In this document: positions 11,404 through 13,844 of the stretch, piece by piece
How positions within the stretch are numbered: position 1 is the stretch's first letter
Layout of the letters: the number at the start of each line of letters is the position of its first letter
From: Methanothrix harundinacea
Lineage (GTDB): Archaea; Halobacteriota; Methanosarcinia; Methanotrichales; Methanotrichaceae
Assembly: GCA_001509375.1 (NCBI GenBank)
Contig: LGFT01000006.1
Location: 1-44,880, forward strand
Length of the DNA: 44,880 nucleotides
Direction: 5' to 3'
Translations under genes and position numbers: made by a program
Notes under the pieces: model-generated
What the model was told of the DNA's origin: nothing
The model's input: only the letters and a program-made list of their open reading frames with translations
The model's database searches: none

Positions 11404-12129
11404 TTGAGCAACATCATAGAGATCAAGAAGCTGAGAAAGGTCTACGGCGATGGGGTGGAGCTGGTGGCCTTGGACGACGTCGACCTGACGATCGAGGAGG
11501 GGGAGGTCCTCGCCATCGTGGGACCCAGCGGCAGCGGGAAGTCGACCCTTCTGAACATGATCGGCCTTTTGGACACCCCCTCCGGCGGCGAGATCTGGCT
11601 CAAGGGGCAGAACATCACCAAGGCCAGCCCAAAGGAAAGGGCTAGGCTGAGAAACAAAGAGCTCGGCTTCATCTTCCAGTATCATCATCTTCTGCCGGAG
11701 TTCACAGCCGTCGAGAACGTGATGATGCCGCTGCTCATCGCCGGGATGGACAAGAAGGAGGCGAGGCATCGGGCGATCACCCTCCTCGAAGAGGTGGGGC
11801 TCGGCGACCGGCTGAACAACAGGCCAAACCAGCTCTCTGGAGGCCAGAACCAGAGGGTGGCGGTGGCCAGGGCCCTGGCGGGCCATCCTTCCATCGTCAT
11901 CGGGGACGAGCCGACGGGAAACCTCGACTCCAAGAGCTCCGACATGATCTACGAGCTGTTGAGAAAGCTGAACCGAGAGATGAACCAGACCTTCATCCTC
12001 GTCACCCACGACATGGACATGGCCGAGAAGACCGACCGAATCCTCCGGCTCGTCGACGGCAGGATCGTCTGCGAGATGAGGAGGGAGGGAGACGAGTTCG
12101 TTTCCCGCGACATATGCCGGGCAGATTGA
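11404..12129 (+). CDS. ABC transporter ATP-binding protein, LolD/MacB type
   Basis: The ATPase that powers the neighbouring permeases. All nucleotide-binding motifs are present: Walker A VGPSGSGKST (39-48), Q-loop FQYHH (about 95), signature LSGGQNQRVAVARAL (about 139-153), Walker B IVIGDEPTG (about 159-167), and the H-loop in LVTHDMD. The 241-residue length is normal for LolD-like subunits. The start is TTG 11404, preceded by GAGGTGAT at a good distance. An ATG alternative is not present nearby. As the only ATPase in the cluster, it probably serves all three permeases. A hairpin follows the stop. Confidence 0.94.
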   Translation: MSNIIEIKKLRKVYGDGVELVALDDVDLTIEEGEVLAIVGPSGSGKSTLLNMIGLLDTPSGGEIWLKGQNITKASPKERARLRNKELGFIFQYHHLLPEFTAVENVMMPLLIAGMDKKEARHRAITLLEEVGLGDRLNNRPNQLSGGQNQRVAVARALAGHPSIVIGDEPTGNLDSKSSDMIYELLRKLNREMNQTFILVTHDMDMAEKTDRILRLVDGRIVCEMRREGDEFVSRDICRAD

Positions 12130-12134
12130 AGAAA

Positions 12135-12151
12135 CCCCTCCGATCCAGGGG
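12135..12151 (+). terminator. Short hairpin after the ABC cassette
   Basis: CCCCT / AGGGG stem with a 7-base loop immediately after the ATPase stop. It is not followed by a long T run, so it is a weak terminator candidate. Confidence 0.3.
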
Positions 12152-12169
12152 CTCAGGAGAATACATAGG

Positions 12170-12179
12170 TTTAAATAAT
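12170..12179 (+). promoter_or_regulatory. TATA box upstream of the TRAM gene
   Basis: TTTAAATAAT lies about 73 bp before GTG 12247. The predicted start of transcription is near 12200, giving a leader of about 45 bases, in which a cold- or structure-dependent control could sit. Confidence 0.45.
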
Positions 12180-12246
12180 CACTGGGCGTTGTCAACCATC
12201 GTGCGAGGCTGCTTTCACAGGTTTTCGCAAGATGGATGTGAACTGA

Positions 12247-12477
12247 GTGTACGGAAATAATCGAGGATCCTTCAGCAGTGGCGGATTCACAAGCTCGTCT
12301 CCAGTTGAAGCTGGAAAGACGTATGAAGTGGAGATTGAGGACATATCAAGGCAGGGAGACGGCATCGCCAGAGTTGAGGGCTTTGTCATCTTCGTCTCTG
12401 AGACAAAGGTCGGAGACAAAGTCAATATATGTATTGACAGGGTCATGCGAAGGTTCGCAATAGCCCACAAAGTCTGA
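12247..12477 (+). CDS. TRAM-domain RNA-binding protein
   Basis: A 76-residue protein made of a flexible Gly/Ser-rich head (about 1-22) and one TRAM domain (about 23-76), a small OB-like beta-barrel that binds RNA. The typical core is YEVEIEDISRQGDGIARVEGF followed by VIFVSETKVGDKVNI. Stand-alone TRAM proteins in methanogens act as RNA chaperones, and several are cold-induced. The start is GTG 12247, with GTGAA a few bases upstream. The downstream 160 bases contain strong hairpins that could be its own 3' UTR or a separate RNA, a natural place to look for TRAM targets. No operon partner is visible. Confidence 0.9.
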   Translation: MYGNNRGSFSSGGFTSSSPVEAGKTYEVEIEDISRQGDGIARVEGFVIFVSETKVGDKVNICIDRVMRRFAIAHKV

Positions 12478-12479
12478 AG

Positions 12480-12640
12480 TTATCTGTCCCCAAAGACGAA
12501 TTGGCCATGCGCAAGCTAGAAAGCTCAAGCATGACCAATTTGACAAGAATGCTCTTTCGCCTCTCCTGCTTGTCTTAACTGATAGGCTGGCAGCTAAATA
12601 GCTGCAAACAGGAGCAATCTAATTTTTGCTTTTGCTGTTA
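12480..12640 (+). ncRNA. Candidate structured RNA or structured 3' UTR after the TRAM gene
   Basis: Three separate stems are packed into about 110 bases. The first (12499-12540) pairs AATTGGCCATGC with GCATGACCAATT with one mismatch, and has an inner AGCT/AGCT stem closing a 4-base loop. The second pairs GACAAG (12542-12547) with CTTGTC (12569-12574). The third (12590-12605) is GCAGCTA-AA-TAGCTGC, possibly strengthened by CTCCTG/CAGGAG around it. A T-rich stretch (AATTTTTGCTTTT) follows. No protein frame explains the order. It may be the TRAM gene's 3' UTR rather than a separate gene, since I see no distinct promoter immediately before it. Confidence 0.4.
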
Positions 12641-13121
12641 ACGTTCGATTTCGAATTGAACTTGGCAAATGCCGTCTCCACTCTGTTATCCTCCCCACGT
12701 CTATAGCTTTAAAATATTCGAATTAAAAATGGGCACAAATGAGTGTGAAATTTTCATAACAATACGTCAAAGTAAACTACAAATAATTCAGATTTGTCGT
12801 CATTTGCTTAAAAGTTCGTTAAAAGCTCGTCAGATTTATATGCGATCAAACTGAAGGGCTGGATGTGCCCGACAAATGACTTCGATGCGGTTCGAGTCTT
12901 TTGTACGGGCCGGAAGCTCCTGGGGGTGGGCATAGCTTCTGCTGGAGTATCCCAGCTTGGTTGGATTTCGATGTCGCGCCTTTTTCAGGTGGGGCATTGA
13001 AACAAATCAGATCCGGCCTTCAACCTTAGGAGCGAAGCTGCTGCACCGCCGAAGCCCGCCTCCTTAAAAATCGGCAAACGAACGCGATTACAGATAAAAA
13101 AAGAACGGGAGTGGGAACTGA
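12641..13121. other. AT-rich intergenic region with an orphan TATA box
   Basis: Nearly 500 bases without a credible protein gene. The left part (to about 12830) is A/T-rich and otherwise featureless. A strong TATA-like TTTATATG at 12835-12842 is followed not by a start codon but by a stem-rich stretch (see the RNA candidate at 12866-12990). The right part contains a second TATA-like CCTTAAAAATC near 13061-13071 that probably drives the secreted-protein gene at 13122. Confidence 0.6.
12866..12990 (+). ncRNA. Candidate small RNA behind an orphan promoter
   Basis: The TATA box at 12835-12842 predicts a transcript start near 12866. The following bases fold into GAAGCT (12913-12918)/AGCTTC (12934-12939) and GCTGG (12941-12945)/CCAGC (12952-12956). 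A run of five T at 12981-12985 after a GC-rich stretch could end the transcript. No reading frame of note lies within. The evidence is promoter plus stems plus T run only. No known RNA family was recognised. Confidence 0.3.
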
Positions 13122-13844
13122 ATGAAGAGAGAACTGGCCATTTTGCTAGTCGTAGGAATTGCCCTGGTGGGCATGGCTGGCGCGGCCAACTACATGTACG
13201 AGAAGTCCAACATCAAGGGCGTTGGCTACAAGAACAAAGAGGTCGTCATTCAGACTCAGACCGGCCTCGCCGGAAACAAGCTGATCGAGAAGGTTTCTGG
13301 AAGCGGAAACATCATCACCGATAGGACCGAGATCGAGGCCCAGAGGGACCCTTCCAATACAGATCCGGCGACAGCTGATGATGTTTGCTGCCCCGACTAC
13401 ATCAATTTCTCCAAGGAGGCCGAATTTGAATACATGCCCGTGAGCTATCAGACCGGCACCTACGACCAAAAGTGGATCGATAAGCTCTGCGTCCAGAACT
13501 ACTACATCGGAGCTGTAGTCGTCGAGATGCACACTCACGCGGAGCACCTACAGAAGAACACCGAGGTCAAGACCAGGAAAGACTGCGATCCAGAATTGGT
13601 GGGAACCCAAGATTGCGGCCGGTGTACAGGGGCTCTTGAGGCCAACTTCAAATCCAACGTAATCGGCGTAGCTCACATTGGATGGCTCTCCAAGGACACC
13701 AACGCGAACTCCAAGGGCAGACACGACGAGTACGGCCGAAGCGTTGAAGACCTGACTGGCGTCTTTTCCATTGAGAAGTTCATCCAGCTATGGGGAAACG
13801 GCAGCTGTGGCGCTGTACAGGTTGACTGGCTGCCCTGCATTTAA
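13122..13844 (+). CDS. Secreted cysteine-rich protein of unknown function
   Basis: A 240-residue exported protein. A clear signal peptide (LAILLVVGIALVGMAGAA, residues 5-22) is followed by a hydrophilic, beta-rich-looking body. Eight cysteines are present, including an adjacent CC near residue 88 and a CGRC pair near 169-172. The even number suggests disulfides outside the cell. The segment after the signal (KEVVIQTQTGLAGNKLIEKV, then SGSGNIITDRTEIE) looks like repetitive strand-forming surface protein. I do not recognise the family. Its isolated promoter, hairpin terminator and long AT-rich flanks suggest a separately controlled, possibly abundant surface or sheath-associated protein, which is inference. 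Confidence 0.8.
   Translation: MKRELAILLVVGIALVGMAGAANYMYEKSNIKGVGYKNKEVVIQTQTGLAGNKLIEKVSGSGNIITDRTEIEAQRDPSNTDPATADDVCCPDYINFSKEAEFEYMPVSYQTGTYDQKWIDKLCVQNYYIGAVVVEMHTHAEHLQKNTEVKTRKDCDPELVGTQDCGRCTGALEANFKSNVIGVAHIGWLSKDTNANSKGRHDEYGRSVEDLTGVFSIEKFIQLWGNGSCGAVQVDWLPCI

What the first reader, a model, noticed from the sequence alone, without database searches (positions are those of the whole stretch)
12480..12640. Cluster of stems after the TRAM gene
Three stems, including an almost perfect 12-bp arm pair (12499-12540), lie in about 110 bases and end in a T-rich stretch. They directly follow an RNA-chaperone gene. This could be a regulatory 3' UTR bound by TRAM or a separate small RNA.
Basis: partly seen in the sequence, partly recalled or inferred. 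Interest (0 to 1): 0.6.

Follow-up and report, generated by a model that had tools for sequence, protein, structure and literature searches.

The report
Conserved hairpin behind archaeal chaperone gene
A small RNA hairpin sits just after a cold-shock-type RNA-chaperone gene in every examined species of a methane-making archaeal genus, most likely shaping the end of that gene's own messenger RNA; only the first of the three reported stems is conserved, and the start of the same message carries a more widely conserved element.

Summary
The stems are real, but only stem 1 (12497-12545) is conserved. A hairpin lies at the same place, 14-29 nt after the TRAM stop codon, in 9 of 9 genomes of the genus, in three different downstream gene contexts, so it belongs to the TRAM message. 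Corrected for composition, all 9 flanks fold unusually well (z -2.1 to -4.9; 13.9% of 173 control 3' flanks go below -2). Covariation in this set is modest and comes mostly from the window's own sequence; the second TRAM copy has its own 3' hairpin with clear covariation. Stems 2 and 3 have no counterpart in relatives. I read stem 1 as an ordinary but conserved mRNA 3'-end hairpin (termination or end protection); binding by TRAM is possible and untested; a separate small RNA is not supported. Following the locus upstream gave a stronger result: a TRAM-specific 5' leader (12199-12241), found in 42 of 50 family genomes, 64 of 69 matches directly before a TRAM gene, absent from Rfam. It is a concrete candidate for the TRAM autoregulation predicted in PMC6705878.

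The parts
12170..12177 (+). TATA-like box TTTAAATA of the TRAM transcription unit
   Evidence: read in the sequence; the box is present in all 9 genus leaders, one as TTTATATA; no transcription start has been mapped
12199..12241 (+). TRAM 5' leader element (sequence motif with a weak possible stem, then the ribosome-binding stretch GGATGTGA)
   Evidence: model R2, 37.1 bits, E 1.1e-8 in the window (this leader is one of the 32 the model was built from); 42 of 50 family genomes, 64 of 69 matches directly 5' of a TRAM gene; pairing without covariation
12247..12477 (+). TRAM RNA chaperone gene, 76 aa, GTG start
   Evidence: PF01938, NF053605; TRAM matches in 50 of 50 family genomes
12497..12545 (+). 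stem 1: conserved 3' UTR hairpin
   Evidence: same place in 9 of 9 genus genomes; folding z against 173 control flanks; best of 6 matches in the window to model R1, built without the window's sequence (E 0.11), but not above background genome-wide
12568..12605 (+). stems 12568-12587 and 12590-12605: lineage-specific, no counterpart found
   Evidence: stem 12590-12605 falls partly on gaps in the two alignable relatives; no DNA match of the region below E 0.016 in 8 congeners
12609..12634 (+). weak last stem containing the T-rich stretch 12621-12633 (possible termination U-tract of the window's own transcript)
   Evidence: fold; not conserved

Best explanation
Stem 1 is a structured element of the TRAM mRNA 3' UTR. 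It most likely acts as a 3'-end hairpin: it marks or protects the end of the message, working with the U-rich stretch at its foot (in most relatives) or further downstream (in the window) in archaeal U-tract termination and 3'-end formation. Shown: position, conservation of a hairpin in the genus, independence from the downstream neighbour, similar hairpins after the second TRAM copy. Inferred: that it is transcribed with TRAM, and that its job is termination or stability. Stems 2 and 3 are lineage-specific sequence without evidence of function.
For: Hairpin 14-29 nt after the stop codon in 9 of 9 genomes. Folding z of the first 75 nt after the stop: -2.1 to -4.9, 9 of 9 below -2 and 6 of 9 below -3, against 13.9% and 2.9% of 173 control 3' flanks of congener G004, and 4.7% (170 5' flanks) and 6.4% (173 coding stretches) below -2. 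Downstream neighbours differ (one ORF family in 6, an oppositely oriented ORF in 2, gene 13122 in the window). Hairpins also follow the second TRAM copy in 8 of 8 fetched loci (degraded in the window's own genome), with 5 pairs changed on both sides (covariation score 0.306; 4 of 500 shuffles and no slid version reach it). In 25 family flanks, 36% have z below -2. Four Us at the hairpin foot in 6 of 9. Hairpins can take part in archaeal termination: one tested hairpin ended 59% of transcripts in Haloferax volcanii (passages of PMC7237163).
Against: Uncorrected fold energy is not exceptional: 18.5 to 53.2% of control flanks fold at least as well. Without the window's sequence the genus hairpin shows no excess covariation; 7 of the 9 both-side changes in my hand alignment come from the window's sequence, whose inner stem I aligned by position. 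In the window's own genome model R1 does not place this hairpin above background. Archaeal terminators are reported to be U-tracts without a required hairpin (passages of PMC8716108), the window hairpin is followed by only three Us, and the consensus terminator scan found none. The tandem TRAM unit's 3' flanks have z below -2 in only 1 of 8.
Confidence: 0.55

Rival explanations
1. The hairpin, together with the conserved 5' leader, is an autoregulatory element: TRAM binds and melts structures in its own mRNA, adjusting termination, stability or translation of TRAM with temperature.
For: Both UTR elements go with TRAM genes: leader matches are 64 of 69 directly 5' of TRAM; the 14 matches of the 3' hairpin model R1 at E <= 0.1 in the 8 congeners all lie in TRAM 3' flanks (reverse-strand matches to the same palindromes included). 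TRAM0076 binds its own transcript and its authors predict autoregulation; it unfolds 5' UTR hairpins (PMC6705878). TRAM proteins antiterminate at a terminator hairpin in E. coli (PMC5572242).
Against: No binding data for this lineage; TRAM0076 has low sequence specificity. The leader's pairing has no covariation support. No temperature-dependent 5' UTR structure was found for Methanolobus TRAM genes (PMC5572242). 3' hairpin sequences differ between TRAM units and between genera, which suits a structural role better than one sequence-specific site.
Confidence: 0.27
2. A separate small RNA is encoded at 12480-12640.
For: Several stems and a T-rich end.
Against: Stems 2 and 3 are not conserved; no conserved promoter-like sequence seen ahead of stem 1 in the 9 flanks; no Rfam match in 12130-13130 at E <= 1.
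Confidence: 0.05
3. The hairpin has no function of its own and reflects slow drift of an intergenic stretch next to a conserved gene.
For: Covariation in the first TRAM unit is weak; 3' hairpins are fairly common in control genes.
Against: A hairpin persists while most of the surrounding flank can no longer be aligned, z values are below -2 in 9 of 9, and the second TRAM unit shows compensatory changes.
Confidence: 0.13

Closest known systems
Archaeal 3'-end U-tract terminators (aCPSF1/FttA-dependent)
   Same: Directly 3' of a gene; U-rich foot in most relatives.
   Different: A conserved GC-rich hairpin is present, which archaeal terminators are reported not to need (PMC8716108 passages); the window copy has a weak U-tract.
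Bacterial bidirectional intrinsic terminators (recalled)
   Same: A-tract, GC-rich stem, U-tract in most congeners.
   Different: Different RNA polymerase; not met in the window (scan found none).
Bacterial csp cold-box leaders and autoregulated archaeal leaders such as L7Ae's k-turn leader (recalled; starts of two L7Ae abstracts seen)
   Same: For the 5' leader 12199-12241: an element shared by paralogous genes of an RNA-binding protein, next to the ribosome-binding stretch.
   Different: Sequence and structure unrelated as far as recalled; no autoregulation shown here.

Membership tests
TRAM RNA chaperone (NF053605 / PF01938) | match above curated cut-offs, stand-alone small protein | tested here: met
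   100.1 bits against cut-off 85; 54.4 against 21; 76 aa
bacterial-type intrinsic terminator | stem followed at once by at least 5 T in 8 bases | tested here: not met
   0 found in 12100-13150; foot of the window hairpin is AATTTGACA
archaeal U-tract terminator | U-tract at the transcript 3' end | tested here: inconclusive
   UUUU at the hairpin foot in 6 of 9 species, 3 Us in the window, a longer U-rich stretch at 12621-12633; no 3' ends mapped
any Rfam family | covariance-model match | tested here: not met
   0 at gathering score in the window; 0 at E <= 1 in 12130-13130
independent small RNA | own promoter and conserved body | tested here: not met
   body beyond stem 1 not conserved; no conserved promoter-like sequence seen by eye
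autoregulatory UTR of an RNA-binding protein | element specific to the gene and conserved | tested here: met
   5' leader: 64 of 69 matches directly before TRAM genes; 3' hairpin: TRAM loci only among 14 matches at E <= 0.1
autoregulatory UTR of an RNA-binding protein | binding by the encoded protein and change of its expression | not testable with these tools
   needs binding and reporter experiments

The most novel reading that the evidence does not exclude
TRAM mRNAs of the family to which the window belongs (Methanotrichaceae by the names of two congeners) are bracketed by two TRAM-specific RNA elements, a family-wide 5' leader and a genus-wide 3' hairpin, through which the RNA chaperone controls its own synthesis: an archaeal counterpart of the cold-box circuit of bacterial cold-shock proteins.
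Probability: 0.27. Interest if true: 0.7.

Novelty: new member of a known kind. Interest (0 to 1): 0.42.

Why it matters
How archaea control their TRAM cold-shock chaperones is open: autoregulation has been predicted without a known RNA element (PMC6705878, passages), and few cis-regulatory RNAs are known in archaea (PMC7247131, passages). The leader and the hairpin give two short, defined sequences to test. By itself the 3' hairpin is probably an ordinary mRNA end.

Tried and rejected
Rfam: nothing. Model R1 as a genome-wide detector of the window's own hairpin: failed (13.7 bits in the window; other places in the genome score 14 and 16). Leader model outside the family: 6 weak matches in the class search (48 of 237 genomes with a match, 42 of them in the family), none of the 6 with a TRAM gene within about 500 nt, taken as chance. 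Five weak family matches (E above 0.03) also lie away from TRAM. My first structure string for the second TRAM unit's hairpin was mis-registered (53.3% paired); it was corrected from the fold of one sequence, so the slid controls favour it to some degree. The first alignment of TRAM flanks mixed orientations and was redone. Energy alone as a criterion was rejected, because 3' flanks in this genus fold well in general. A search for the leader in the order returned only the same 50 family genomes.

Dropped rows: one search skipped flanks shorter than 75 nt and duplicates. Leader alignment A5 uses 32 stretches out of the 56 distinct ones printed, leaving out intercistronic stretches, near-duplicates and the second unit's longer-loop leaders (the longer-loop ones are still found by the model). 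In the script the G008 flank begins at its stop codon, because that protein is one residue longer; its z therefore includes the three stop bases, and its hairpin starts 14 nt after the stop rather than the 17 printed.

Full report
Setting. The window is contig C86 of a 2.38-Mb archaeal genome. The identification by equal contig length is my inference. The gene before the finding, 12247-12477, encodes a stand-alone TRAM RNA chaperone. TRAM matches occur in 50 of 50 family genomes; the window's gene has a closest counterpart at 88-93% identity in all 8 other genomes of the genus.

Observation. The region folds better than its shuffles (z -3.4), and a comparable arm pair appears in 24 of 1000 shuffles.

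Conservation. In all 9 genus genomes a GC-rich hairpin starts 14-29 nt after the TRAM stop codon, typically RAAATGGYC-N-GCGCAGC-loop-GCTGCGC-N-GGCC-N-TTTTA. The full helix is degraded in G001 and G003: 14 of 18 pairs each, as in the window's own sequence; the others have 16 to 18. The downstream neighbour differs: one ORF family (transporter-like by eye, not tested) in 6 of 9, an ORF on the opposite strand in 2, gene 13122 in the window. The hairpin therefore goes with the TRAM gene. A covariance model built from the 8 other species ranks the window's hairpin first of 6 matches in the window, but at E 0.11 with the runner-up at 0.21, and genome-wide it is not above background. In the 8 congeners the model's 14 matches at E <= 0.1 are the TRAM loci, on either strand because the hairpin is nearly palindromic, plus one at G008:C1:3937-3980, directly downstream of the second TRAM copy.

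Strength of the structural evidence. Raw energies are ordinary for this genus: 18.5 to 53.2% of 173 control flanks are at least as stable. Against dinucleotide shuffles they stand out: z -2.1 to -4.9, each within the best 0 to 11% of controls. The controls come from one congener and from ORFs called by a simple longest-ORF rule. Covariation among the 8 congeners (7 distinct) is no greater than in shuffles. Adding the window gives 86.8% paired cells (0 of 2000 shuffles as high) and 7 pairs changed on both sides (13 of 2000), but 7 of the 9 such cells are the window's own, in a hand alignment. The second TRAM unit is independent support: 16 pairs, 82.0% paired cells, 5 pairs changed on both sides, covariation score 0.306 against 0.220 in shuffles and at most 0.138 when slid. 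The tandem TRAM unit carries another hairpin, GTTCAGCCC...GGGCTGAA or close, in most of the loci read, but only 1 of 8 of its flanks has z below -2. In other genera of the family, 36% of 25 flanks have z below -2, several with a GGTTC...GAACC hairpin followed by a U-rich stretch.

Stems 2 and 3. In the closest alignable relatives, G008 and G002, the stem 12590-12605 falls partly on gaps and the last stem on dissimilar sequence. A DNA search with 12478-12660 found nothing better than a 21-base match at E 0.016 in the 8 congeners. They are specific to this lineage.

Mechanism. I favour a 3'-end hairpin of the TRAM mRNA. In 6 of 9 species four Us stand at the hairpin foot; in the window a longer U-rich stretch follows at 12621-12633. 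Archaeal termination is reported to rely on U-tracts without a required hairpin (PMC8716108, passages), although hairpins lie upstream of some ends in Haloferax and one tested example terminated 59% of transcripts (PMC7237163, passages). None of this has been measured for this organism.

The stronger neighbour: the 5' leader. Upstream of the TRAM gene a TATA-like box is followed by a leader kept in all 9 species. The same leader, GCG-nn-AAACU-loop-GGUUUUUCGC-AAGGACGGUG in consensus, precedes all three TRAM units of the genus and TRAM genes across the family. A model of 32 leaders matches in 42 of 50 family genomes at E <= 0.1; 64 of 69 matches lie 5' of a TRAM gene on the same strand (62 within 41 nt, 2 at 179 nt), and the 5 others have E above 0.03. 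The model was built from such leaders, so its finding them is partly by construction; what is informative is the near absence of other strong matches in these genomes. The search scored only a limited number of candidates per genome. Outside the family the 6 weak class matches have no TRAM nearby. The possible stem pairs in 92.6% of cells but with no change on both sides, so a sequence motif is shown and a structure is not.

Literature. TRAM0076 of Methanococcus maripaludis unfolds 5' UTR hairpins, binds many RNAs including its own transcript, and is predicted to be autoregulated (PMC6705878, abstract and passages). Three of four Methanolobus psychrophilus TRAM genes are cold-induced, and no RNA thermometer was found in their 5' UTRs (PMC5572242, one section and passages). 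The leader found here is a candidate site for the predicted autoregulation. That is an inference.

Verdict. A real, conserved, probably ordinary 3'-end hairpin. Its companion stems are not conserved, and the more interesting element is the TRAM-specific leader at the other end of the same message.

Noticed in passing
window 12825-13121: A second conserved noncoding stretch with its own TATA-like box, directly upstream of gene 13122-13844. Its first 140-180 nt recur at 73-78% identity ahead of homologues of that gene (75-81% protein identity) in G003, G004, G005 and G006, where homologous genes stand in tandem; another copy is at G000:C108:225-403. It looks like a long conserved 5' leader of an unnamed, possibly secreted protein family (no Pfam match).
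   Followed up: partly
L042:1159-1772 and L043:1159-1494: TRAM genes in tandem, two or more copies, where each later copy is preceded by a repeat of the 3' half of the leader (TTTTTATGTTTTCTCGCGAAGGATGGTG or close) without the 5' GCG half.
   Followed up: no
L046, L050, L053, L059, L061, L062, L069 (first 75 nt after the last TRAM gene): In other genera of the family a hairpin with the recurring core GGTTC...GAACC or close, usually followed by a U-rich stretch, stands after the last TRAM gene.
   Followed up: partly
window 12199-12241: The family-wide TRAM-specific 5' leader, outside the coordinates given.
   Followed up: yes
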